64,000 bases of DNA from assembly GCF_000025005.1 (NCBI RefSeq), contig NC_013526.1:1-64000 (forward strand). Direction: 5' to 3'. The position numbers and the translations under genes are program-made. A model generated the notes under the pieces. It was not told the origin of the DNA and did no database searches. It worked only from the letters and a program-made list of their open reading frames with translations. Below, piece after piece: positions 11,961 through 24,703 of this stretch (the first letter of the stretch is position 1; each line of letters begins with the position of its first letter). This DNA is from Thermobaculum terrenum ATCC BAA-798. Lineage in GTDB: Bacteria > Chloroflexota > Chloroflexia > Thermobaculales > Thermobaculaceae.

Positions 11961-12064
11961 ACAATCCTTCCAAGGCAATATTTAGTACATTTATACTGCA
12001 AGTTGCGTGAGGGGTCAAATGCCCTGTTGAGATTTGGCAAATAGGGCTAGAGGGTTTGTCTCGG

Positions 12065-12189
12065 GGGGAGGATCCTCCCCAGACCCCTCCCTCTGTGGGT
12101 CTTCCACCACTGAGTGGTGAGGGGGGATTCATGGAGAGGAGGGGGACGGGAGTCGCCCCTCCTGGGTCCCCGGACGATCATGGATCGTC
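12065..12189. repeat. Cluster of strong hairpins
   Basis: Four inverted repeats occur within 125 bp: the 16-bp palindrome GGGGAGGATCCTCCCC (12065-12080); CACCACT and AGTGGTG around one base (12105-12119); GGAGGGGGAC against GTCGCCCCTCC (about 12138-12161); and GACGATC-ATG-GATCGTC (12173-12189), whose arms extend to 12 bp with one mismatch. The density suggests a structured RNA or protein-binding DNA; no T-tract marks a terminator. Confidence 0.6.
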
Positions 12190-12308
12190 TGGGGTGTTCC
12201 TGCCTCTCCATGACCTCACCACCCCCACAAAGCTGCACCATGGTGCCATCCAGGGAGGTTGTGGAGAACATATGAGTGCTCTGAGGTGTCCTGACATGTC
12301 CCAGGGAC

Positions 12309-12348
12309 CCCCTCTCCCCTGGCCCCTCTCCCACCACTGGAGAGGGGC
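12309..12348. repeat. C-rich/G-rich dispersed-type inverted repeat
   Basis: A stretch beginning CCCCCTCTCCCCTGG and ending CTGGAGAGGGG forms an imperfect inverted repeat. Similar CCCTCTCC/GGAGAGGG elements also occur at about 2640-2680, and this type is common as a dispersed intergenic repeat in high-GC bacteria. Function not evident. Confidence 0.4.
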
Positions 12349-12502
12349 ACGCTGGGTGGTGTCCAGGGAACTTGGATATGGGTTGGGTCATGGAGGGATT
12401 TAGAGAGGTGGTTTGGGGATGGAGTTGGAGAGGATGAGGGAGGGTGGCCGACTGAGGTAGTGGGAGGACAAGGGCCACCCCCCTGCTGGAGAGGGAACGG
12501 TT

Positions 12503-12526
12503 GGGGATGGGAGTGGGAGGGTGGGG
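12503..12526 (+). repeat. G-quadruplex-like motif
   Basis: Successive G runs GGGG, GGG, GGG, GGG and GGGG are separated by loops of 1-3 bases on the + strand, meeting the usual four-run pattern with very short loops. Whether it folds in the cell is unknown. Confidence 0.55.
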
Positions 12527-12650
12527 TGGTGGTAGGGATGCGAGTTGCTGCTCTCTGGAGGGGAGAGCCAGAGGAGCAAGGGGATCGCGGTGCAGAGTGG
12601 GGCCTGGAGGGGGTAGGGAGGTGGTTTGGAAGGGAGTAAGTGTTATGGTA

Positions 12651-12695
12651 AATTCCCGATTTCCCGATTACTTAAGAGTCGGGAATTCGGGAATT
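12651..12695. repeat. Nested palindrome, copy 1 of 5
   Basis: 45 bp. The left arm is AATTCCCGATTTCCCGATT and the right arm GTCGGGAATTCGGGAATT, around ACTTAAGA. Each arm holds two tandem TTCCCGA half-sites, so the element offers four half-sites in two inverted pairs. It is preceded by TTATGGTA, shared with copies 2 and 3, and by a GGGAGTAAGT stretch shared with copy 3. Confidence 0.85.
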
Positions 12696-13024
12696 ACTTC
12701 GGAGGGGTCCGTCGTGAGAGGGATGCATGATGGCCTGGAGCTGGGAGCTGGAGGTGAACCTGCACTGAGGAGTAATTAGAGACAGGTATATCAAGGCCTG
12801 CGTGCGGCCCGGGAGTGAGGTGTCGGGGCCAGAGGAGGCCGCCTGTCCCACGATGGACGGAAGCCTGGCAGGACCAGAGGTGCCCCTTGCCTCCACCCAC
12901 TCCCTGGGATTGCTCCGCAGGAAGTAACGCACGGGCGGATGCCTGAGCGCAGGGTCATGAGGACTTCCCTCAGGCGATGCTACCACCATGGTGTGGGGTA
13001 TCACTCATCTACAGCATTATGGTA

Positions 13025-13069
13025 AATTCCCGATTTCCCGATTGTTAAGAGACCGGGAAATCGGGAATA
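13025..13069. repeat. Nested palindrome, copy 2 of 5
   Basis: Same architecture as copy 1: left arm AATTCCCGATTTCCCGATT, centre GTTAAGAGA, right arm CCGGGAAATCGGGAATAA. It starts 374 bp after copy 1 and is preceded by TTATGGTA. Confidence 0.85.
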
Positions 13070-13334
13070 AGGGGCTGTGGGGCTTTGCCTGGCGATGGGT
13101 GCAGGGGGGCTATGAGGGTGATGAGGAGGAGACGCCTGATCGAGGCTACTGAGGACTGGGGAACTGACCTTGAGGGGCTGGACACTGGCAGCTTGAGGAC
13201 CTGCGAAGGAGGTGGAGGGTATGTGGTGCGTCGTCAATCCCCTGCCAGGCATGAGAGCGCCCTGCATATGGAGAGTCGGGGGAGGTGTGAGGTGGAGCGC
13301 TGGGCCAACACAGAGGGAAGTAAGTCTTATGGTA

Positions 13335-13379
13335 AATTCCCGAATTCCCGATTCTTAAGTAATCGGGAAATCGGGAATT
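13335..13379. repeat. Nested palindrome, copy 3 of 5
   Basis: Left arm AATTCCCGAATTCCCGATT, centre CTTAAGT, right arm AATCGGGAAATCGGGAATT. The most symmetric copy (one mismatch between arms). It starts 310 bp after copy 2 and is preceded by TTATGGTA, as are copies 1 and 2. Confidence 0.85.
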
Positions 13380-13620
13380 GGTGAAGAGGGGGTGCCTGCA
13401 GGGTGTGACGGTTGCCCCTCATCTCCTGGCCCCCGGAGGGGTCACTACACATAGGGCTGGCTGCTGCCGACAGAGCAGAGACTGCGCCTGAGTGGAGCCT
13501 GCCCTGAGGGTGGTGGATCCACCGACAGGTGACAAGCAGGACTGGATGGTGCCATCTCGCCAGGGGCTGCTCACCGCTTCCTGCCCGCTGGGCAAGCGGT
13601 AGAGGGAGAAGGCAGGGAGA

Positions 13621-13665
13621 AATTCCCGAATTCCCGGTTCTTAAGTAATCAGGAATTCGGGAAAA
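13621..13665. repeat. Nested palindrome, copy 4 of 5
   Basis: Left arm AATTCCCGAATTCCCGGTT, centre CTTAAGT, right arm AATCAGGAATTCGGGAAAAA. This is the most diverged copy (one base change inside the inner right half-site). It starts 286 bp after copy 3 and lacks the TTATGGTA lead-in. Confidence 0.8.
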
Positions 13666-13724
13666 AGTGGCGTGGGGGTGGAGAGATCTCTTGCGTCCCT
13701 GGGAGGGTGGTGCCTGGGGAGCAT

Positions 13725-13763
13725 GGGGTTGAGGGATGGGAGGGCTGGGGGATCAGTGGGGGT
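13725..13763 (+). repeat. G-quadruplex-like motif
   Basis: G runs of 3-5 (GGGG, GGG, GGG, GGG, GGGGG, GGGGG) occur within 39 bp on the + strand with loops of 1-7 bases, between palindrome copies 4 and 5. Meets the common four-run pattern more than once. Confidence 0.5.
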
Positions 13764-13842
13764 AGAAGGATTGCCTGCTGTGGGGAGGGATACTCCCCCT
13801 GGGGGTGCACCGGGTCCACAGGCAGTGCAGGGTGTCATGACT

Positions 13843-13887
13843 AATTCCCGAATTCCCGGTCTCTAAAGAATCGGGAAATCGGGAATT
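13843..13887. repeat. Nested palindrome, copy 5 of 5
   Basis: Left arm AATTCCCGAATTCCCGGT, centre CTCTAAAGA, right arm ATCGGGAAATCGGGAATT. It starts 222 bp after copy 4, so copy spacing shrinks steadily (374, 310, 286, 222 bp) toward cas3. Confidence 0.85.
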
Positions 13888-13950
13888 GGGGCTGGGGCTA
13901 TTGATGTGGGGTGCAGGGGGTTGTGGGAGGTGGGGCGTATTGCCAATTGC

Positions 13951-14052
13951 CTTGCACCTCAGAGCAGACACGAGGACTGCACGCGTAGGAGTCTTTGAGG
14001 TGCCATACCCTCTTATCCTCTTGCACCCCAGAGCAGATACGAGGCCTGCACG
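13951..14052 (+). repeat. Two ~33-bp degenerate direct repeats
   Basis: CTTGCACCTCAGAGCAGACA, continuing CGAGGACTGCACG (13951-13983), recurs as CTTGCACCCCAGAGCAGATA, continuing CGAGGCCTGCACG (14020-14052), with three differences and 69-bp spacing. Further imperfect repeats follow (GGTCGTGGGGGTG at about 14057 and 14118; GCCGCGTAGGTG at about 14152 and 14219). Together they form a degenerate repeat field before the cas promoter. Confidence 0.65.
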
Positions 14053-14360
14053 TGGGGTCGTGGGGGTGGTAGATGTGACCGGCATATGGGTAACGTGGCA
14101 GCGCCAGTAGCCTGGCTGGTCGTGGGGGTGATACATGAGGCCGGGAGGGTTGCCGCGTAGGTGCGGAGGGTGGGGGGAGCACCGAGCGGCCAGTGCCTCT
14201 GGTTGGCCGGCAAGGGTGGCCGCGTAGGTGGCTGTGGGGCATATAAGGTCCCGGAGGCGATGACCACTGGTTGCATGGTGCCTGCACCTGCGGGTGCGGG
14301 GTACGTAAGGGCTGGGGCTTGCTAGGGTGCCTCATTCTCAGGCGGGGAGCTCTAAGTCTA

Positions 14361-14389
14361 TTGACAGTCAGTGACATTGTGTGTATCAT
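14361..14389 (+). promoter_or_regulatory. Promoter of the cas operon
   Basis: Consensus -35 TTGACA (14361-14366), an ideal 17-base spacer and -10 TATCAT (14384-14389, one base from TATAAT), about 55 bp upstream of the cas3 start. The best sigma70-type promoter seen in the window. Confidence 0.75.
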
Positions 14390-14442: not shown

Positions 14443-17277
14443 ATGAATGGCGGACCGGGTATGGATGGCACTAGCGAGGTTGATCTATCAGGGGCTGGGA
14501 GCCCGGTAGGGGCGGCTGGCTGGAGGGTTGATCCCTGGATTTTCTGGGCCAAGTGGGGTAGTGGGCCTGATCTGGGGTGGCATCCGCTGTTGTGTCATAT
14601 GCTGGATGTGGCGGCGGTGACCTTGCAGATGTGGCGCAGGGTGCTGCCGGCGGCCTGGAAGGCCAGGATCAGCGGCGTTCTTGGGGTAGGGCAGGAAGAT
14701 GCCGAGAGATGGCTGGCGTTCTTTGCGGGCGGCCATGACATAGGCAAGGCTTCGCCTGCGTTCCAGCTGCAGCTGCGGCCTGAGCAGGGCAGGGAGCTGG
14801 TGGCTCGTCGCCTGCGGGATGCTGGCCTGCCTCTGTTCAATGCGCGTGCGCCTCATGGCACGATCTCGGCCAATGTCCTGGAGACGGTGCTTGCAGATGT
14901 CTTCGGCTTGAGTGGCCGGTCTGCGCGGTGGGTGGCGTTTGCTGTGGGAGGTCACCATGGCTTCGTCCCCAGCTATGACGAGGTCAGGCGGGATCTTGAC
15001 CAGCAGGCCGTGGGCTGGGGGATGTGGGATGCGGCCCGGGAGGTGCTGCTGTGCAGGCTGGCTGATGCGCTCGGGCTGCCGGGATCCTCTCGCCCGACTG
15101 TCGAGTCCACGCCGGATGCCTTCATGCTGGCCGGGCTTGTCTCCGTGGCGGACTGGATAGGCTCGAATGAGGAGTACTTCCCCTATGCTGCCCAGAGCGC
15201 TCTGCAGGTGCCGCAGCTGGATGCTGAAGCCTACCTCGAGAGGGCGATGCGGCAGGCCGAGAGGGCGATGGCCAGCCTGGGATGGGTGGGCTGGAGGCCT
15301 GCTTCCGGGTCCATGCGGCTTACCGAGCTGTTCCCTTATATCAGGCAGCCGACCACGGTGCAGGCTGCCGCTGAGGAGCTGGCCGGGGAGGTAAAGTCCC
15401 CATCGATCACCATCATCGAGGCGCCCATGGGAGAGGGGAAGACGGAGGCGGCCATGCTGCTTGCGGATACGTTCAGCACCGCGCATGGCATGAGCGGCTG
15501 CTACTTTGCGCTGCCCACGATGGCCACCAGCAACCAGATGTTCGGCAGGGTGACGGATTACCTCAGGCACCGCTATCCGGAAGACGTGGTGGTGGTCAAC
15601 CTGGTGCATGGGCATTCGGATCTCTCGGCACTGCTGCAGGAGCTGAGGCAGAAGGGGGAGGAGATCTTCCAGCTGCAGGGGGTATATGATGAGGCTCTGG
15701 GCGATGAGCAGCTGGGCGCGGTGGTGGCAGGGCAATGGTTCACGCGCGGCAAGCGGGCTTTGCTGCCTCCATATGGGGTGGGCACGGTCGATCAGGCGCT
15801 GCTGGCGGTGCTGCAGGTGAAGCACGTCTTCGTGAGGCTGTTCGCGCTCTCGACGAAGACCGTGATCGTTGATGAGGTCCATGCTTACGACGTGTATATG
15901 ACCACCCTGCTGCACAGGCTACTGGAGTGGCTTGGGGCTCTGTCGGTCCCCGTGGTGGTGCTCTCGGCTACATTGCCCAGCGCGCGGCGTCGAGAGCTGG
16001 TGAAGGCCTATGCCAGGGGTGCAGGTTGGCAGGCTGAGAGGGATTTGCCACCGGCGGGGTACCCGCGCATAACCTATGCGGCCGCCGAGGATGTGAGGGG
16101 TATCCACTTTGCGCCCTCTGAGGCTTCTCGCAGGAAGGTGGCGCTGCGCTGGGTAAGCGCTCCTGAGCACGAGGCGCTGGGGCAGCTGCTGGCTGAGGCG
16201 CTCTCACAGGGGGGCTGCGCAGCGATCATCTGTAACACTGTCCCTCGAGCGCAGGCCCTGTACTCCGCACTCAGGGAGGTCTTCCCCGGCCTGGCCGAAG
16301 ATGGCATGCCGGAGCTGGACCTGCTGCACGCCCGCTATCCCTACGAGGAAAGGGAGGTGCGCGAGGCACGCACGCTCGGGAGGTTCTCACGCAATGGCCG
16401 CAGACCTCACCGCGCGATACTGGTGGCCACGCAGGTGATAGAGCAAAGCCTGGACCTGGACTTCGACCTCATGGTCACCGACCTGGCCCCGGTAGATCTC
16501 GTGCTCCAGCGCATGGGTAGGCTGCACCGCCACCCCGTTCATGACCCGCTCAGACCCGAGAGGTTGAGGTCGCCTGAGCTGTGGGTGGTATCGCCCCAGG
16601 TCATGGGGGATGTGCCGATATTCGACAGAGGCAGCGCCAGCGTCTATGACGAGCACACGCTGCTGCGCAGCTGGCTCGCCCTGCGCGATCGGGACACCCT
16701 GCAGCTGCCGGAGGATATCGAGGAGCTGGTGGAGCAGGTCTACAGTGATGGGCGGGTGCCGCAGGGTGCCTCCGAGGAGCTGCGAAGCCTCTGGGAGCGG
16801 ACCTTCAAGGCCCAGCAGAAGGTGCTCAGGGAAGATAGCCTGCAGGCCAAATACAGGTACATCAAGGGGCCTGGATACAACTCGATATGGGGGATAGTAA
16901 CAGCGAGCGTGGAGGAGGATGCCCCCGAGCTGCACCCTGCGCTGCAGGCTCTCACTCGTCTGGCGGAGCCCAGCGTGTCCGCCGTGTGCCTCGTGGCTGG
17001 GAGCGGTGGGCCCTGCCTGCCGGATGGTACGCCGGTGGATCTCGATACGCCGCCGGACGCTGCGATGGCCGAGAGGCTGCTGCGCCGCTCGGTGGCCATT
17101 ACAGATGCCAGAGTGCTGGATCCCCTGCTGGATGTGCCCGTGCCGAAAGGCTGGGAGCGCTCCTCGCTGCTCAGGGGGTACAGGCCCCTGGTCTTTGATG
17201 CCTCAGGAAGGGCCATGGTTGGCAGGTGGATCGTAAGGATTGATCCCGAGCTCGGGATTGTAGTGGAGAGCCCTTAG
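14443..17277 (+). CDS. cas3: CRISPR-associated nuclease/helicase Cas3 (type I-E)
   Basis: Encodes up to 944 aa; ATG codons at 14443 and 14461 are both possible starts. The N-terminal HD nuclease shows GWHPLLCHMLDVAAV, AGGHDIGKASPAFQ (the HD pair), APHGTIS and VGGHHGF. The SF2 helicase follows: Walker A APMGEGKTEAAM, DEVH box VIVDEVHAYDVYM, LSATLPS, and motif VI VLQRMGRLHRH preceded by VATQVIEQSLDLDFDLM. The enzyme is recruited by Cascade to R-loops and unwinds and degrades the non-target DNA strand. First gene of the cas operon; the next start is 31 bp downstream. Length is normal for the family, and all catalytic residues look intact. Confidence 0.97.
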   Translation: MNGGPGMDGTSEVDLSGAGSPVGAAGWRVDPWIFWAKWGSGPDLGWHPLLCHMLDVAAVTLQMWRRVLPAAWKARISGVLGVGQEDAERWLAFFAGGHDIGKASPAFQLQLRPEQGRELVARRLRDAGLPLFNARAPHGTISANVLETVLADVFGLSGRSARWVAFAVGGHHGFVPSYDEVRRDLDQQAVGWGMWDAAREVLLCRLADALGLPGSSRPTVESTPDAFMLAGLVSVADWIGSNEEYFPYAAQSALQVPQLDAEAYLERAMRQAERAMASLGWVGWRPASGSMRLTELFPYIRQPTTVQAAAEELAGEVKSPSITIIEAPMGEGKTEAAMLLADTFSTAHGMSGCYFALPTMATSNQMFGRVTDYLRHRYPEDVVVVNLVHGHSDLSALLQELRQKGEEIFQLQGVYDEALGDEQLGAVVAGQWFTRGKRALLPPYGVGTVDQALLAVLQVKHVFVRLFALSTKTVIVDEVHAYDVYMTTLLHRLLEWLGALSVPVVVLSATLPSARRRELVKAYARGAGWQAERDLPPAGYPRITYAAAEDVRGIHFAPSEASRRKVALRWVSAPEHEALGQLLAEALSQGGCAAIICNTVPRAQALYSALREVFPGLAEDGMPELDLLHARYPYEEREVREARTLGRFSRNGRRPHRAILVATQVIEQSLDLDFDLMVTDLAPVDLVLQRMGRLHRHPVHDPLRPERLRSPELWVVSPQVMGDVPIFDRGSASVYDEHTLLRSWLALRDRDTLQLPEDIEELVEQVYSDGRVPQGASEELRSLWERTFKAQQKVLREDSLQAKYRYIKGPGYNSIWGIVTASVEEDAPELHPALQALTRLAEPSVSAVCLVAGSGGPCLPDGTPVDLDTPPDAAMAERLLRRSVAITDARVLDPLLDVPVPKGWERSSLLRGYRPLVFDASGRAMVGRWIVRIDPELGIVVESP

Positions 17278-17308
17278 GGTGAACAACACACGCTGGAGGA
17301 TAGAGATC

Positions 17309-18910
17309 ATGCATAGTTTCAACCTGGTGGATGAGCCCTGGATACCAGTCAGGCCGATTGGGGCCAGCACCACCCAGCTCATGGGCTTGAGGGACGTGCT
17401 GCTGGGCGCGCACGCTATCAGGGAGCTTGTGGACCCCTCGCCCCTGGTAACCGTATCTCTGCACAGGCTGCTGCTAGCCATACTCCACCGCGTGTTCGGC
17501 CCCCGGGACGACGCCGAGTGGGCGGAGCTTTACGGGGGCGGCAGCTTTCCCCCGCAGCCGCTGGAGGACTACCTGCAGCGCTGGCATGACCGGTTCGACC
17601 TCTTCCATGAGAAGTATCCCTTCTACCAGAAGGGCAGCATACAGCGCCAGAGCGTAACGAAGCTGTGGCCGGTCACGCGCCTGGCGCCGGAGATCGCTTC
17701 CCCCGGCAACGCCACAACGCTCTTTGATCACACCCTGCCGGAGGGCGTGGCGTTCACCCCCGACAGGGCTGCCCGCTACCTGGTGTTGCTGCACCCGTTC
17801 ACGGTCGGCGGCCTGTTCGGGCTGCTGAAGGGGGAGAAGGACAAGGCGGCGGATGCAGGTCCACTGGCCAAGTGCGCGGTCGTGCTACTGAGGGGGCGCA
17901 CCCTGTTCGAGACGCTCATGCTCAACATGGTCAGGTACGACCCGGAGTTCGACGAGCCCTGCCCCTCCACCCCAGAGGATAGTCCCGCCTGGGAAAGGGA
18001 CGATGATACCCAGCCAGTCGATCGCCTGCCGAAGGGCTACCTCGACTACCTGACGTGGCAGAGCCGGCGCGTGAGGCTCTTCCCGGAGGTTCAGGACGGT
18101 AGAGTAGTGGTGCGTGAAGTGATCATCGTCAAGGGGTGTCAGTTACGGCCCACGGAGGAGATCGCCAACTACGAGACCATGGTAGCCTTCCGGAAGAACC
18201 CGCGCGCCGGCAAAGGAGAAAACCCCAGGCCTCCAGTGGGCTTCAGGGAAGACCGTGCCATGTGGCGCGACAGCCACGTGATCTTCCAGTCCACGGATAC
18301 GCACACCCAACCTCGCAGCCTCAGGTGGATAGCCGAGCTGATAGCCATGGGGCGGCTGCAGGAGGAGCACAGGCTGCCGCTGGAGATCTACGGCATAATC
18401 ACCGACCAGGCCAACATCAAGCTCTGGCGGCACGAGGTGCTGCCTGTGTCCACGCGCTACTTCAGCGACAGGAACCTCTACAGCCAGCTCCAGAGGGCAC
18501 TTGCGATGGCCGAGAGTGTGGGCCAGGAGCTGGACCGCACGCTGGAGCAGCTGGCGAGAGATCTCCTGCCCAACCCCAACAGAGACGAGATAAACAACCT
18601 GAGGAAGGCCATCAACGCCACCCCCACGTACTGGGCCTCGCTGGAGGTGCCCTTCCATCACTTCCTGCTGGAGCTCGAAGCCGACAGGCAGCTGGTCCAG
18701 GGACGCCCGATCTACGGCTACGGGTACGCCATGCGCAACTGGATGGATGCTATCAAGCAGGCGGGAAGGCTGGCCCTGGAGTTCGCCGTGTCCGGACTGG
18801 ACGGCAACGCCAGGAACCTGAGGGCCGCGGTCAACGCCAGGGGCAGGTTCAACGGGAGGCTCAACACGTTGCTGGCGCAGGAGGCTCCCGGCCTGGAGCT
18901 ACCTGCATAA
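17309..18910 (+). CDS. cas8e: Cascade large subunit Cas8e (Cse1/CasA)
   Basis: Encodes 533 aa from the ATG at 17309, which has GGAGG 9 bases upstream; a GTG at 17279 has no proper ribosome site. The typical Cse1 N-terminus (HSFNLVDEPWIPVRPIG, then GLRDVLLGAHAIRELVDPSP) is present, as are the LLHPFTVGGLFGL region and the long helical C-terminal domain (SLEVPFHHFLLELEADRQLV). It recognises the PAM and positions Cas3 in the type I-E surveillance complex. Expected length for the family is 500-550 aa. It lies between cas3 and cse2 with 30-bp gaps. Confidence 0.96.
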   Translation: MHSFNLVDEPWIPVRPIGASTTQLMGLRDVLLGAHAIRELVDPSPLVTVSLHRLLLAILHRVFGPRDDAEWAELYGGGSFPPQPLEDYLQRWHDRFDLFHEKYPFYQKGSIQRQSVTKLWPVTRLAPEIASPGNATTLFDHTLPEGVAFTPDRAARYLVLLHPFTVGGLFGLLKGEKDKAADAGPLAKCAVVLLRGRTLFETLMLNMVRYDPEFDEPCPSTPEDSPAWERDDDTQPVDRLPKGYLDYLTWQSRRVRLFPEVQDGRVVVREVIIVKGCQLRPTEEIANYETMVAFRKNPRAGKGENPRPPVGFREDRAMWRDSHVIFQSTDTHTQPRSLRWIAELIAMGRLQEEHRLPLEIYGIITDQANIKLWRHEVLPVSTRYFSDRNLYSQLQRALAMAESVGQELDRTLEQLARDLLPNPNRDEINNLRKAINATPTYWASLEVPFHHFLLELEADRQLVQGRPIYGYGYAMRNWMDAIKQAGRLALEFAVSGLDGNARNLRAAVNARGRFNGRLNTLLAQEAPGLELPA

Positions 18911-18940
18911 GTACAGGAACAAATTAAAAGGAGGTGAGGT

Positions 18941-19501
18941 ATGTCGCAGACCCTGACTACGGAAACCTGTGCCCGGATGCTCATCAGCGAGCTCCAGGGG
19001 CTTGTGGAGGCCGAGGACCGCGGCGCGCTCGCTGCCCTGAGAAGAGGGCTGGGCAAGCGCCCGGGCGAAGCCGCCGAGATGTTCCCCTATGTTGTGCCCT
19101 ATCTACCGGAGGACCTCTGGGCGCAGGACTGGTTCTTCGTGGTGGCCTCTCTCTTCGCCGTCCACCCACTCTCCTGGCAGGCGGACGGGAACGCGAGGGA
19201 CACCAACTTCGGCGCTTCCTTCCGCAGGCTGCGAGAGGCCAGGGGGCAGGAGGAAGGGGACAGCCTGGAGAACCGCTTCGTGGCCTTGCTCGACTCCAGA
19301 GGAGAGGACCTGCCCCACCACCTGCGTCGTGCGATCGGTCTCATGAGGGGCGAGGAGATCCCAGTGAATTGGTACAGGCTGCTGATCGACCTGACCTACT
19401 GGGACCACCCCGACCGGTTCGTGCAGCGGCAGTGGGCCGAGCAGTTCTGGCGTCGGCAGCCGGCCGAACAGTCCTCAGACCAACTTCCCACAACAACCTA
19501 A
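18941..19501 (+). CDS. cse2: Cascade small subunit Cse2 (CasB)
   Basis: Encodes 186 aa; AAAGGAGGTGA upstream of the ATG is one of the strongest ribosome sites in the operon. The all-helical sequence contains LRRGLGKRPGEAAEMFPYVV near the N-terminus and NFGASFRRLREARG plus ENRFVALLDSRGEDLPHHLR in the middle, matching Cse2, which lines the belly of Cascade as a dimer and stabilises the crRNA and non-target strand. Slightly longer than the Escherichia coli protein. Flanked by cas8e and cas7e as expected for subtype I-E. Confidence 0.93.
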   Translation: MSQTLTTETCARMLISELQGLVEAEDRGALAALRRGLGKRPGEAAEMFPYVVPYLPEDLWAQDWFFVVASLFAVHPLSWQADGNARDTNFGASFRRLREARGQEEGDSLENRFVALLDSRGEDLPHHLRRAIGLMRGEEIPVNWYRLLIDLTYWDHPDRFVQRQWAEQFWRRQPAEQSSDQLPTTT

Positions 19502-19531
19502 TCACAACAACCTAATAAGGAGGATTCACAC

Positions 19532-20680
19532 ATGCTGGTCGAACTGCACATGATCCAAAACTTCGCCCCATCCAACCTCAACCGCGACGATACAGGCTCT
19601 CCCAAGGACTGCGAGTTCGGGGGCGTGCGCCGTGCCCGCATATCCAGCCAGTGCATCAAGAGGGCCATACGCAGGGAGTTTAAGCAGAACGGCCTGCTTG
19701 ACAGCGAGAGGATCGCGGAGCGCACCCGGCTGGTCACCCAGGAGATCGCCGATCGACTGGCCAGGCTCGGGCGAGACCGCGAGCAGGCTACCAGGGTGGC
19801 CGGCTTCCTGCTGAGCGCTGCCAAGCTCAAGGTGGATAATAGCCAGCGGACCGAGTACCTGCTGTTCCTCGGCAGGGGGGAGATAGATGCTATAACGGCA
19901 CTGTGTAACGAGCGCTGGGATCAGCTCGCCCCCCTTGCGGACCAGTCACTGAGCGACCAGAGCAACGACAAGAAGAAGGCCGCACAGCAGGTGCCGGCGG
20001 ATATGAGCCGCGAGCTGCTTGCCAGGCTGGACGGTGGCAAGGCCGCCGACCTGGCGCTGTTCGGGCGCATGCTGGCGGACCTGCCGGACAAGAACATCGA
20101 TGCTGCCTCGCAGGTCGCCCACGCGATATCCACGCATCGCGTCAGCATAGAGTTCGATTTCTACACCGCTGTGGATGACCTCCAGCCCGAGAGCGAGACG
20201 GGCGCCGGGATGATGGGCACGGTCGAGTTCAACTCCGCATGCTTCTATCGCTACTCCAACGTGAGCATGGAGCAGCTGATCACCAACCTCCAGGGTGACA
20301 GGGAGCTGGCGCTCAAGACGCTGGAGGCCTTCATACACGCCTCCGTGCGGGCTATCCCCACCGGCAAGCAGAACAGCATGGCAGCCCACAACCCCCCTTC
20401 GATGGTCTTCGCGGTCGTCAGGGAAGGTGCTCCATGGTCCCTGGCCAACGCCTTCGCCAGGCCCGTAGCTCCGGGCAGAGAGGAGGACCTCGTAGGGCGC
20501 TCCATTCAGGCTCTGGACAGCTACTGGGGCAAGCTCGTCAGCGTGTACGGCGGCGATGACATCCGCAAGAAGGCGCTCATCACCCTGGAAGATGTGCCCC
20601 TCCAGCACCTCGGAGACGCCAGAGTGGAGACCGTGAAGGCCCTGGTAGAACAGGTGGTCGCAGCGGCAGGAGGTGCGTGA
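19532..20680 (+). CDS. cas7e: Cascade backbone subunit Cas7e (Cse4/CasC)
   Basis: Encodes 382 aa; AAGGAGGA precedes the ATG. The N-terminus LVELHMIQNFAPSNLNRDD followed by GGVRRARISSQCIKRAIRR is the family hallmark of the RNA-binding Cas7 backbone, and the central GTVEFNSACFYRYSNVS plus TGKQNSMAAHNPPSMV are also typical. Six copies form the helical crRNA filament of Cascade. Length is usual (about 360-390 aa). Its stop overlaps the cas5e start by one base (TGATG). Confidence 0.97.
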   Translation: MLVELHMIQNFAPSNLNRDDTGSPKDCEFGGVRRARISSQCIKRAIRREFKQNGLLDSERIAERTRLVTQEIADRLARLGRDREQATRVAGFLLSAAKLKVDNSQRTEYLLFLGRGEIDAITALCNERWDQLAPLADQSLSDQSNDKKKAAQQVPADMSRELLARLDGGKAADLALFGRMLADLPDKNIDAASQVAHAISTHRVSIEFDFYTAVDDLQPESETGAGMMGTVEFNSACFYRYSNVSMEQLITNLQGDRELALKTLEAFIHASVRAIPTGKQNSMAAHNPPSMVFAVVREGAPWSLANAFARPVAPGREEDLVGRSIQALDSYWGKLVSVYGGDDIRKKALITLEDVPLQHLGDARVETVKALVEQVVAAAGGA

Positions 20681-21372
20681 TGCCCACGCTTCTCATGAGA
20701 CTCTCAGGCCCGATGCAGTCCTGGGGCACGCAGAGCAGGTTCACCGTGAGGGATACCGGCCGGGAGCCCTCCAAGAGCGGGGTGATAGGGCTGATCTGCG
20801 CCGCCCTGGGACGTCCCCGCACGGCGCCCGTCGACGACCTGGTCAGGCTGCGCATGGGAGTGCGCGTGGACCGCGAGGGCATAGTGATGCGCGACTACCA
20901 TACAGCAGGCGGCGCACCCGCCGGCGAGCGGTACGGCGTGGCAACGGTCACCGGTGACCAACGGCCAGTGCAGTCCTCCCGCTACTACCTGGCGGACGCC
21001 AGCTTCCTGGTGGCGCTGGAGGGAGGGGAGGAGGACAGACCCCTCCTGGAGCAGATCGACGAGGCGCTGAGGGCCCCCCGCTGGCAGCTCTTCCTCGGGA
21101 GGAAGAGCTGTGTGCCCAGCGAGCCCATCCACCTGCCGAAGGAACCTCCGCTGGGGCCACCCATCCGGGAAGAAGACCTGCGCACCGCTCTGATCTCCTA
21201 CCCCTGGCCCGAGGGCGCCCATCGGCTGCGGTTCGTCTTCGAGGATCCGGAGGGCGAAGAGCTGCGCAACGACGTGCCCATATCCTTCGAGATAGGCAAC
21301 AGGCAGTACGCCGCGCGCTTCGTGCGCACCGAGATAATCATCAACCCTGCACTGCAGGACGCAAGGAGGTGA
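20680..21372 (+). CDS. cas5e: Cascade subunit Cas5e (CasD)
   Basis: Encodes 230 aa from the ATG at 20680 (AGGAGGT upstream). The N-terminus TLLMRLSGPMQSWGTQSRFT and the following TGREPSKSGVIGLICAALG are the Cas5e signature, and FLGRKSCVPSEPI in the second half is also typical. It caps the 5' handle of the crRNA next to Cas8e. Translationally coupled to cas7e. Family length and motifs are normal. Confidence 0.96.
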   Translation: MPTLLMRLSGPMQSWGTQSRFTVRDTGREPSKSGVIGLICAALGRPRTAPVDDLVRLRMGVRVDREGIVMRDYHTAGGAPAGERYGVATVTGDQRPVQSSRYYLADASFLVALEGGEEDRPLLEQIDEALRAPRWQLFLGRKSCVPSEPIHLPKEPPLGPPIREEDLRTALISYPWPEGAHRLRFVFEDPEGEELRNDVPISFEIGNRQYAARFVRTEIIINPALQDARR

Positions 21373-21377
21373 TCGCC

Positions 21378-22100
21378 GTGCTCTACCTTTCCAGGCTCAG
21401 GCTACAGCCACGCCATCGCGATGTCCAGAAGGACCTCAGCAACTGCCACGCGCTCCACTCCCGCATCCTGTCGGCCTTCCCCCTGCTGCCCACCCCATCC
21501 TCCCCCAGGGCGGAGATGGGCGTCCTGTACCGCCTGGAAGAGGCAGGACGCTTCCCCACGGTGATAGTGCAGTCCAGGCTGGAGCCCGACTGGAGTCGCC
21601 TGCCAGAGGGGTACCTGGCATTCCCCGCAGAGTGCAAGCGCGTGGACGATAAGTACAGCCGGATCAACCAGGGAGACCGCTTCATCTTCAGGCTCCGAGC
21701 TAACCCGACCAGGCGGATAGCCAGGGGCAACACCGAGCAGGCCGAGAGATGGAGGGGCAAGAGGGTGGAGCTCCAGCGCGAGGAGGACCAGATCGACTGG
21801 CTCATACGCAAGGGCGACCAGCACGGGTTCAAGCTCCTCAGCATCACCGTGCGCCAGCAAGCCGTGCCCAACCTGCGCGTGCTCCCCAACAACAAGACCC
21901 ATGGGTGGCGGCGAGATGCAGGCGGCAACCGCAGGCTGACCTTCGGGTCGGTGCAGTTCGAGGGCGTGCTGGAGGTCACCGACAGGGAAAGCTTCATGCA
22001 GGCGCTCGAGCAGGGCGTCGGCAGCGGCAAGGCCTTCGGCTTTGGCCTGCTGTCCATAGCCCCCGGCGCCCAGCCCCCTGACGAGGGGGATGCGCCATGA
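21378..22100 (+). CDS. cas6e: crRNA-processing endonuclease Cas6e (Cse3/CasE)
   Basis: Encodes 240 aa from a GTG at 21378. The GGAGGTGA at 21365-21372 makes that start far better than the GTG at 21369, and it gives the typical beginning MLYLSRLRL. The motif CHALHSRILSAFP aligns with the YQLHQGLWHLFP region of the E. coli enzyme, placing the catalytic His at about residue 27, with His24 at the usual Tyr position. GDRFIFRLRANPTRRI and the glycine-rich GSGKAFGFGLLSI near the end match the family. It cuts the repeat RNA at the base of its hairpin. The stop overlaps the cas1 start (ATGA). Confidence 0.95.
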   Translation: MLYLSRLRLQPRHRDVQKDLSNCHALHSRILSAFPLLPTPSSPRAEMGVLYRLEEAGRFPTVIVQSRLEPDWSRLPEGYLAFPAECKRVDDKYSRINQGDRFIFRLRANPTRRIARGNTEQAERWRGKRVELQREEDQIDWLIRKGDQHGFKLLSITVRQQAVPNLRVLPNNKTHGWRRDAGGNRRLTFGSVQFEGVLEVTDRESFMQALEQGVGSGKAFGFGLLSIAPGAQPPDEGDAP

Positions 22101-23071
22101 GGCTGAAGGACCTGCACATACTCCCCAGGGTCAGCGACAGCTGGTCCTACCTCTACGTAGAGCACTGCAGGATCGACCAGGACGCCAGGGCGATCTCCCT
22201 GCACGATGCCACAGGCAAGACGATGGTGCCCTGTGCCAGCCTCTCGCTGCTCATGCTCGGCCCCGGGACGTCGATCACGCACGCAGCCATCCAGACCCTA
22301 GCCGACAACGGGTGCCTGGTGGCCTGGGTCGGCGAGGAGGGTGTAAGATTCTACGCGCAAGGCATGGGCGAGACCCGCTCCGCAACCAACACCCTCAGGC
22401 AGGCGATGCTGTGGAGTGATCCAGAGCTGCACCTGCAGGTGGTCCGTCGGATGTACGAGATCCGCTTCCGCCACCCCATCAACCCCAACACCAGCCTCAA
22501 GCAGATACGCGGCATGGAGGGCGCAAGGGTGAGGGGCGCCTACCTCCAGCTAAGCAGAGAGACCGGGGTGGAGTGGAAGGGGAGGGACTACAGCAGCAAG
22601 TCATGGCATTCGAACGATGCCATCAACCGTGCCATATCCGCGGCCAACAGCTGCCTGTATGGCGTCTGCCACGCGGCGATCGTCTCCGCTGGCTACTCCA
22701 CCGCCCTGGGCTTCATCCATACGGGTAAGATGCTGTCCTTCGTCTACGACGTAGCAGACCTCTACAAGACGGAGATCTCCATGCCAGCAGCCTTCTACGC
22801 AGTGGCCGAGGGCGGCGCATCCCTCGAGAGCCGTGTGAGGCGCAAGTGCCGCGACATCCTTCGGGAGACTCGCCTGCTCGCCAGGATAGTCGAAGACATA
22901 GATACCGTACTAAACGTGGACAGTCCCATCCCCCACAAGTACCAGAATCCATACGACTCCGACCCAGGGGTGCCCGGGGGCTGGTGGGACCCCGAAGCGA
23001 GGGAGATACAGGGAGGCTACAACGCTGCCAGGACGCCTGGCCCGGAAGATCCCGGGGAGGCGGACACATGA
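22097..23071 (+). CDS. cas1: CRISPR adaptation integrase Cas1 (type I-E)
   Basis: Encodes 324 aa. The predicted metal-binding residues are E141 (RGMEGARVRGAY), H208 (LGFIHTGKMLSF), and D218 and D221 (VYDVADLYKTE), all present. With Cas2 it captures prespacers and inserts them at the leader end of the array. The subtype I-E N-terminus (LPRVSDSWSYLYVEHCRIDQ) is clear. The C-terminal 40 residues are Pro- and Gly-rich. Overlaps cas6e by ATGA and cas2 by ATGA. Confidence 0.97.
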   Translation: MRLKDLHILPRVSDSWSYLYVEHCRIDQDARAISLHDATGKTMVPCASLSLLMLGPGTSITHAAIQTLADNGCLVAWVGEEGVRFYAQGMGETRSATNTLRQAMLWSDPELHLQVVRRMYEIRFRHPINPNTSLKQIRGMEGARVRGAYLQLSRETGVEWKGRDYSSKSWHSNDAINRAISAANSCLYGVCHAAIVSAGYSTALGFIHTGKMLSFVYDVADLYKTEISMPAAFYAVAEGGASLESRVRRKCRDILRETRLLARIVEDIDTVLNVDSPIPHKYQNPYDSDPGVPGGWWDPEAREIQGGYNAARTPGPEDPGEADT

Positions 23072-23513: not shown

Positions 23514-24703
23514 ATCGTCCCCACACGCGTGGGGGTGAACCCTGCACCTGCACGGTGTTGCCCCCGGTGGGTACATCGTCCCCACACGCGTGGGGGTGAA
23601 CCGAGGAGATGCAGAGCTGGGGGCTCGAGTTCTCTATCGTCCCCACACGCGTGGGGGTGAACCGCAGCCGCCTCGGGGCTGTTTGGCCTTCTCGTCATCG
23701 TCCCCACACGCGTGGGGGTGAACCGTAACGTCGATCTCGAGAGATGAGCGAGACGAGATCGTCCCCACACGCGTGGGGGTGAACCGCTGGGCGCGGGCGC
23801 GAGCACCAGGGGTGCGGGATCGTCCCCACACGCGTGGGGGTGAACCGCTGGGCGCGGGCGCGAGCACCAGGGGTGCGGGATCGTCCCCACACGCGTGGGG
23901 GTGAACCGTTGGGGGACAAAAATGGTGAGTAGCACATAAGATCGTCCCCACACGCGTGGGGGTGAACCGGCAGCGCCACTGCCGCCAGCAACCCGGGCAT
24001 CATCGTCCCCACACGCGTGGGGGTGAACCGAACAACGACATGCCCGCGCCCCAGGAGCTCACATTGTCCCCACACGCGTGGGGGTGAACCGTTGTCCGCA
24101 GGGGGGTGGGAGCTCACTCCACCATTGTCCCCACACGTGTGGGGGTGAACCGGTGCGCGACCACGCCCACCGCTGCCAGGGGAGATCGTCCCCACACGCG
24201 TGGGGGTGAACCGGCGTAGTCCGCCACCGCCTTGAACCCGGGCACATCGTCCCCACACGCGTGGGGGTGAACCGTTGTGTGGGATCCTCTTTGGCCGACC
24301 GCTGCTATCGTCCCCACACGCGTGGGGGTGAACCGAACACGGAACTACGGGCGGAGCTCGAGCGCGCATCGTCCCCACACGCGTGGGGGTGAACCGCTAC
24401 AGATGACGCCTGCTTTGCGCTCCGGGGGCATCGTCCCCACACGCGTGGGGGTGAACCGTAGAGCGAGCCCGAGGTTGAGAGGCGCACCATATCGTCCCCA
24501 CACGCGTGGGGGTGAACCGGCCTCCGAGCTCCTCCGACGCTTCCTGGAGCTATCGTCCCCACACGCGTGGGGGTGAACCGCGCCGCCCGCAGCGCCTCTC
24601 CATCCACCACGACATCGTCCCCACACGCGTGGGGGTGAACCGCAACCGCTGCAACGCCTTCTGCCAGGGGGATAATCGTCCCCACACGCGTGGGGGTGAA
24701 CCG
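23514..24703 (+). CRISPR. Type I-E CRISPR array, 20 repeats and 19 spacers
   Basis: 29-base repeats start ATCGTCCCC, continue ACACGCGT and end GGGGGTGAACCG, forming the CCCCACACGCGTGGGG hairpin that Cas6e cuts. Repeat starts: 23514, 23575, 23636, 23697, 23758, 23819, 23880, 23941, 24002, 24063, 24124, 24185, 24246, 24307, 24368, 24430, 24491, 24552, 24614, 24675. Spacers are 32 bases, except two of 33 (after 24368 and 24552). Spacers 5 and 6 are identical. Repeat 1 ends in C, not G. Repeats 10 and 11 start ATTG, and repeat 11 also has ACACGTGT. There is no degenerate repeat at the distal end. By eye I found no spacer matching this window. Confidence 0.98.

What the first reader, a model, noticed from the sequence alone, without database searches (positions are those of the whole stretch)
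12651..13887. Five copies of a four-half-site nested palindrome with shrinking spacing, between a terminase-like gene and cas3
Each 45-bp element has arms containing two tandem TTCCCGA boxes and a CTTAAG-like centre; spacing between copies is 374, 310, 286 and 222 bp. Twenty potential half-sites in 1.2 kb of gene-free DNA is unusual. Copies 1-3 also share TTATGGTA upstream. Known possibilities are partition (parS-like) sites, replication iterons, REP/MITE-like elements or operators for a multi-site regulator; none has its usual partner gene here. Conservation of the arms with variable spacers argues for a protein-binding function.
Basis: partly seen in the sequence, partly recalled or inferred. 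Interest (0 to 1): 0.75.

Follow-up and report, generated by a model that had tools for sequence, protein, structure and literature searches.

The report
CRISPR-linked mosaic arrays of 45-bp palindromes
The five palindromes are one piece of a 39-copy family in the heat-loving bacterium Thermobaculum terrenum. It marks the joints at which non-coding DNA blocks, and even whole CRISPR immune-memory arrays, have been copied and shuffled between four chromosomal sites.

Summary
Contig sizes identify the genome as Thermobaculum terrenum YNP1 (window = start of chromosome 2). The element (E) has constant length: TTCCCGAWTTCCCG-N13-CGGGAAWTCGGGAA, 45 bp with edges. The genome holds 39 copies, in only four clusters, all next to CRISPR loci; two copies lie in frame inside a primase-helicase gene. 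Arms are almost invariant (3 changes in 1014 positions) while copies of the same neighbouring DNA differ by about 3-9%. Blocks between E's are non-coding cassettes, nearly all head-to-tail, with fixed end types and G-rich in one direction. The same cassettes recur beside different neighbours, and homology often stops at E. One 1113-bp, 100% identical block shared by two clusters starts inside an E and ends 10 bp past another. Type I-E CRISPR arrays are themselves units: two share spacers yet have unrelated neighbours. Best reading: E is the recombination joint of a mosaic intergenic array, working like Neisseria NIME/dRS3 arrays but unrelated in sequence and carrying CRISPR arrays as modules. 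The responsible enzyme is unknown. parS, REP/RAYT, ncRNA and decayed-CRISPR readings were tested and not supported. An integron-like recombinase is not excluded. The 'shrinking spacing' is incidental.

The parts
12651..12695 (+). E copy 1, 45-bp palindrome; a-end (TTATGGTAAA) on its left, b-end on its right
13025..13069 (-). E copy 2; 13-bp centre inverted relative to the array polarity
13335..13379 (+). E copy 3
13621..13665 (+). E copy 4, one arm mismatch (CAGGAA); left flank is the TTTCTC-type end
13843..13887 (+). E copy 5
12045..12650 (+). 'L module' ending in an a-end; seven related copies border E arrays on both chromosomes; contains a REP-like hairpin (12308-12347) dispersed through the class
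12694..13026 (+). Cassette family A (b to a); 3 further copies: C2:1054222-1054548, C1:582423-582749(-), C1:1926116-1926442(-)
13068..13336 (+). Cassette family B; copies at C1:579328-579617 and C1:1918640-1918928; the last ~40 bp differ in this copy
13378..13622 (+). Cassette seen once; ends in the TTTCTC-type end rather than an a-end
13664..13844 (+). Cassette family C; inverted copy at C1:1923394-1923575
13886..14309 (+). b-end of the cas-side unit; inverted copy at C1:1922929-1923352
14361..14389 (+). Promoter-like site TTGACA-17-TATCAT upstream of cas3
14443..23071 (+). Type I-E cas operon: cas3, cse1, (18934-19515, no family hit, cse2 by position), cas7, cas5, cas6e, cas1
23517..24703 (+). 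Type I-E CRISPR array (19 repeats found), one of four with this repeat; all four lie in or next to E clusters

Best explanation
E (with its short a and b flanks) is the recombination joint of a mosaic intergenic array. Recombination between E's copies, deletes, inverts and re-orders the DNA blocks lying between them, among four loci on both chromosomes. The blocks are non-coding cassettes, 'L modules' and complete CRISPR leader-plus-array units, so the array also serves to move and duplicate CRISPR arrays. Shown: E-bounded modularity, breakpoints at E, fixed polarity, constrained arms, and linkage to CRISPR. Inferred: the arms are recognised by a protein or extrude as a cruciform, and this starts ectopic recombination between E's. 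I think general (RecA-type) recombination provoked at the palindrome more likely than a dedicated integrase, because no recombinase gene was found in the clusters.
For: (1) 39 E's in four clusters and none elsewhere in 3.1 Mb. (2) Cassettes recur with different neighbours, and homology between clusters commonly ends at E: all pairs of family A end within 3 bp of an E edge on both sides. (3) A 1113-bp 100% identical block, C1:581320-582432 versus its copy in C1:1923.6-1924.7 kb, begins at the core/right-arm boundary of one E and ends 10 bp beyond another. (4) CRISPR arrays C1:1901 and C1:1925 share four spacers, leader and trailer, are bounded by E's, and have unrelated neighbours on both sides. 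(5) a/a and b/b E junctions mark inversions; the one inverted lone CRISPR repeat lies beyond such a junction at C2 ~1054.8 kb. (6) Arm positions 3/1014 changed versus 3-9% substitutions between cassette copies. (7) E forms a 15-17-bp stem as single-stranded DNA, z about -5 to -6.
Against: Only one genome holds the family, so no exchange was seen between strains. No recombinase lies in the clusters. Some mosaic breakpoints lie inside cassettes (family B, L modules), so E is not the only joint. With E masked, only 28 of 150 homology ends lie at E in both copies (4.4% of bases lie that close); the rest are mostly inside the internally repetitive L modules. A 41-bp repeat is short for efficient general recombination. 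The fixed head-to-tail polarity of cassettes without detectable homology to one another is not explained by general recombination alone.
Confidence: 0.55

Rival explanations
1. Integron-like system: a-E-b is an attC-like site. An unlinked tyrosine recombinase excises and inserts cassettes head-to-tail, and CRISPR arrays are some of the cassettes.
For: Nearly all cassettes share the same two ends and polarity but no detectable mutual homology. E has two pairs of inverted boxes. Centre orientation follows array polarity in about 23 of 26 a/b junctions. Whole CRISPR units moved.
Against: No integron integrase: the five tyrosine recombinases are 50 kb or more from E clusters, and none reaches the integron-integrase cut-off (best 114 of 265 bits; the best two look like XerD and XerC). 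Cassettes carry no ORFs beyond chance. The integron boxes GTTRRRY/RYYYAAC were not searched for; the arms are TTCCCGA repeats.
Confidence: 0.2
2. Multi-site DNA-binding platform: E is the 41-45-bp operator or architectural site of a regulator (two dimers) acting on CRISPR-Cas loci; shuffling is a by-product of ordinary duplication.
For: Near-invariant arms, symmetric degenerate consensus fitted by 33 of 39 copies, every cluster next to CRISPR loci, array directly upstream of the cas3 promoter-like site.
Against: Two E's lie inside the coding sequence of a primase gene, others are kilobases from any cas gene; array size and spacing vary freely; block boundaries at E are not predicted.
Confidence: 0.13
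3. E itself is a tiny mobile palindrome (like Rickettsia palindromic elements or REPs) that inserted repeatedly.
For: Two stand-alone copies in frame in linkers of a primase-helicase; fixed length.
Against: No conserved GTAG/CGTC tag visible in the flanks, no Y1/RAYT gene, no obvious target duplication; insertion would not give shared a/b ends, uniform polarity, or clustering beside CRISPR loci.
Confidence: 0.08
4. Chromosome partition or replication-origin repeats (parS or iterons).
For: Chromosome 2 clusters lie within about 20 kb of coordinate 1, near a replication-initiator-like gene.
Against: Canonical parS is at C1:309104; chromosome 1 clusters are elsewhere (579-584 kb, 1899-1926 kb); two clusters per chromosome with shuffled contents.
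Confidence: 0.04

Closest known systems
Neisserial intergenic mosaic elements (NIME: dRS3 + RS repeats), PMC3898611
   Same: A short palindrome (dRS3: ATTCCC-N8-GGGAAT) separates families of longer non-coding repeats in intergenic arrays; proposed to promote recombination at neighbouring genes and to serve as a recombinase target.
   Different: dRS3 is 20 bp with about 700 copies and RS units are 30-160 bp. Here 45 bp with four boxes, 39 copies, cassettes 181-408 bp with fixed polarity, and CRISPR arrays as modules. Unrelated organism; the ATTCCC/GGGAAT end resemblance is probably coincidental.
Integron cassette arrays (attC)
   Same: Head-to-tail cassettes separated by imperfectly palindromic sites with two pairs of inverted boxes.
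   Different: No integron integrase, non-coding cassettes, several loci on two chromosomes, palindrome arms nearly invariant.
REP/BIME elements and RAYTs, PMC3733652
   Same: Small palindromic repeats, sometimes inside replication or repair genes.
   Different: No GTAG/CGTC tag visible, longer stem, no Y1 transposase in the genome.
Rickettsia palindromic elements (from memory)
   Same: Palindromic repeats found in frame in coding sequence.
   Different: Most copies here are intergenic joints between shuffled cassettes.

Membership tests
NIME (dRS3/RS) | 20-bp ATTCCC-N8-GGGAAT repeat | tested here: not met
   E is 41-45 bp with fixed N13 centre and doubled boxes
NIME (dRS3/RS) | intergenic arrays of palindromes separated by recurring repeat families | tested here: met
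   recurring cassette families between E's in four clusters
Integron / attC array | integron integrase gene | tested here: not met
   no TIGR02249/PRK15417 hit above cut-off among the five Phage_integrase proteins
Integron / attC array | head-to-tail cassettes separated by palindromic sites | tested here: met
   polarity table
Integron / attC array | R boxes GTTRRRY/RYYYAAC | not tested
   not searched for; the arms of E are TTCCCGA repeats
REP/RAYT | GTAG or CGTC tag at one end | not tested
   no scan run; the aligned flanks show no conserved tag by eye
REP/RAYT | Y1 transposase (PF01797) in the genome | tested here: not met
   0 matches; the search does find the family in 5 of 14 control genomes
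parS centromere | TGTTTCACGTGAAACA-like 16-mer | tested here: not met
   canonical parS found at C1:309104, not in E clusters
CRISPR array | short repeats with unique spacers of constant length | tested here: not met
   intervals of 181-408 bp that recur; no CRISPR-repeat relics beyond chance in most cassettes
Known structured RNA | Rfam match | tested here: not met
   no match to E = 1
Rickettsia palindromic element-like | in-frame insertion into genes | tested here: inconclusive
   two E's in frame in a 662-aa primase-helicase, at inter-domain linkers; homologs too diverged there to show an empty site

The most novel reading that the evidence does not exclude
A cassette-recombination system with non-coding cassettes: a dedicated, unlinked recombinase uses a-E-b as its site and mobilises whole CRISPR leader-arrays as cassettes, an integron-like way of reshuffling immune memory.
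Probability: 0.15. Interest if true: 0.88.

Novelty: new variant of a known kind. Interest (0 to 1): 0.56.

Why it matters
How CRISPR arrays multiply and move within a genome is mostly inferred from scattered duplicates. Here arrays sit as modules between nearly identical palindromic joints, with both recent (100% identical) and old exchanges preserved, so the process becomes testable at defined breakpoints. It also adds an intergenic mosaic array, of a type described in Neisseria, to a thermophile in Chloroflexota, with a highly constrained joint whose binding protein is unknown.

Tried and rejected
Decayed CRISPR: cassettes tested for relics of the I-E repeat, mostly no excess over shuffles. 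Spacers against the clusters: only 15-16-nt matches. Protein-coding cassettes: no ORF excess. Structured RNA: no Rfam hit at gathering threshold or E = 1. Common ancestry of cassette families: 78 pairs, mean z 0.46, no clear homology. E-driven promoter: one weak hit spanning E and a-end (13048-13019, minus strand) whose -10 is absent from the TTAGTCATAA variant. E elsewhere: none in 2.9 million viral contigs. A looser pattern over about 85,000 species genomes gave five unrelated palindromes with other core lengths and flanks. In 157 other genomes of the class there is one 2-mismatch copy (G046), and a weaker one turned up in G056; neither is in an array. No DNA relatives of the region in phage or plasmid records. 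Serine recombinases: two hits in short frames (153 and 128 aa), neither in a cluster.

Full report
What was checked. The five copies exist exactly as described and far exceed chance. The window is the start of the second contig (1,074,634 bp) of a genome whose other contig is 2,026,947 bp. These are the published sizes of chromosomes 2 and 1 of Thermobaculum terrenum YNP1 (PMC3035366). The neighbours are a terminase-like gene and a type I-E cas operon.

Anatomy of the element. A genome-wide pattern search gives 39 copies with up to 3 mismatches and none outside four clusters: C1:578.6-583.9 kb (11), C1:1898.7-1926.4 kb (18), C2:12.65-13.85 kb (5, the finding) and C2:1054-1072.5 kb (5). Every copy has the same length. 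The arm bases are almost invariant apart from the A/T-variable eighth position: 3 changes in 1014 positions. Copies of cassette families A-C differ by about 3-9% substitutions. The centre varies mainly by transitions and broadly fits the self-complementary consensus RTYNYTWARNRAY; 33 of 39 copies fit the full symmetric 41-mer. The opposed W positions do not covary (19 paired, 19 not; Fisher p = 0.71) and the centre is largely unpaired, so the pattern looks more like duplex recognition by a symmetric protein than maintenance of a hairpin. A single strand can nonetheless fold into a strong stem.

Anatomy of the arrays. Reading outwards from E there are two main flank types. One is a (TTWRYCATAA outward, i.e. 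TTATGRYWAA-E); the other is b (E-TWAGKGG...). A third, TTTCTC-type end closes L modules and a few units. Nearly every non-coding interval runs from a b-end to an a-end, and all 20 short units are G-rich in that direction (mean skew 0.31). The orientation of the E centre follows this polarity in roughly 23 of 26 a/b junctions (several near-symmetric centres make this count approximate). A few junctions are a/a or b/b and mark inversions. Cassette families recur: A four times, B three, C twice, and D-E-F twice as a block. Neighbours differ between copies. The clearest case is a 1113-bp stretch, 100% identical between C1:581320-582432 and its copy in the second cluster. It starts at the core/right-arm boundary of one E and stops 10 bp beyond another E, with unrelated sequence outside. 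Not every breakpoint is at E: family B and the L modules have internal switches, and with E masked only 28 of 150 homology ends lie at E in both copies.

CRISPR linkage. All four arrays with the I-E repeat lie in or next to E clusters; the one in the window is 9.7 kb from the nearest E, with the cas operon between. The other three begin, at the leader side, directly at an E b-end, and two of them end in an a-end plus E. The arrays at C1:1901 and C1:1925 share four spacers, leader and trailer, but have different neighbours on both sides, so a complete E-bounded CRISPR unit was duplicated and re-placed. The fourth cluster abuts a giant array of a different repeat (147 forward copies and one inverted, genome-wide), and the inverted copy lies just past an a/a E junction. 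The genome paper lists six CRISPRs; I located five arrays plus this single repeat, so one further array elsewhere cannot be excluded.

Explanation. The evidence fits a mosaic intergenic array in which E is the joint. Modularity, breakpoints, polarity, arm constraint and CRISPR linkage are shown. That a protein binds E, or that cruciform formation provokes recombination, is inferred. General recombination at a palindrome is my first choice because no recombinase gene was found in the clusters: the tyrosine recombinases are elsewhere and resemble XerC/XerD or phage integrases, serine recombinases are two hits in short frames, and there is no Y1 transposase. The fixed polarity of cassettes with no detectable mutual homology is the strongest hint of an integron-like process and is not explained by general recombination alone.

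Comparison with known systems. What it works like: the Neisseria dRS3/RS mosaic arrays (NIME; PMC3898611). It is not a member: length, box structure and unit sizes differ, and the shared ATTCCC/GGGAAT ends are probably coincidence. It is not parS, lacks the transposase of REP/RAYT systems (tags described in PMC3733652), and is not a CRISPR array or a known RNA.

Limits. One genome only; no close relative carries E arrays (157 other genomes of the class), so time order and strain variation could not be examined. The in-frame copies in the primase-helicase gene fall at domain linkers, but homologs are too diverged there to prove insertion.

Noticed in passing
L032:13250-15238 (C1:1898249-1900237); E at C1:1898668 and 1899267: A 662-aa DnaG-type zinc-ribbon/AAA primase-helicase ORF contains two complete E's in frame (read as NSRIPDPLTIGNSGI and RIPEFPVPKESGNR), both at domain linkers; paralogs lie near two phage-type integrases.
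   Followed up: partly
C2:1043771-1053570 (L091): Very large CRISPR array, repeat GTTTCAATCCCTTATAGGTAGGCTACGAAC (147 forward copies genome-wide), ending at an L module and E array; one lone inverted repeat at about C2:1054797.
   Followed up: partly
C1:1901278-1902318 and C1:1925155-1926074: Two CRISPR arrays share four consecutive spacers and trailer but differ on the leader side: a duplication of an E-bounded array followed by separate spacer acquisition.
   Followed up: yes
C1:1900265-1901070 and C1:1917711-1918505: About 820-bp direct repeats (E plus L module) bracket a 17-kb island with a CRISPR array, a type ISP restriction enzyme, phage portal and capsid genes and an ABC transporter.
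   Followed up: no
window 12308-12347: REP-like CCCTCTCCC...GGAGAGGG hairpin inside the L module is dispersed in many genomes of the class.
   Followed up: no
C1:579659-581292: 1634-bp non-coding unit with b-ends on both sides, on which cassettes from both directions converge; its first 270 bp recur at C1:1902393.
   Followed up: no
C1:309104-309119: Perfect canonical parS, suggesting the chromosome 1 origin lies near 309 kb, not at coordinate 1.
   Followed up: no
L039:1013-1070 (G046:C185) and G056:C10:52264: Single E-like palindromes (2 or more mismatches) in two genomes of another family of the class, not in arrays.
   Followed up: partly
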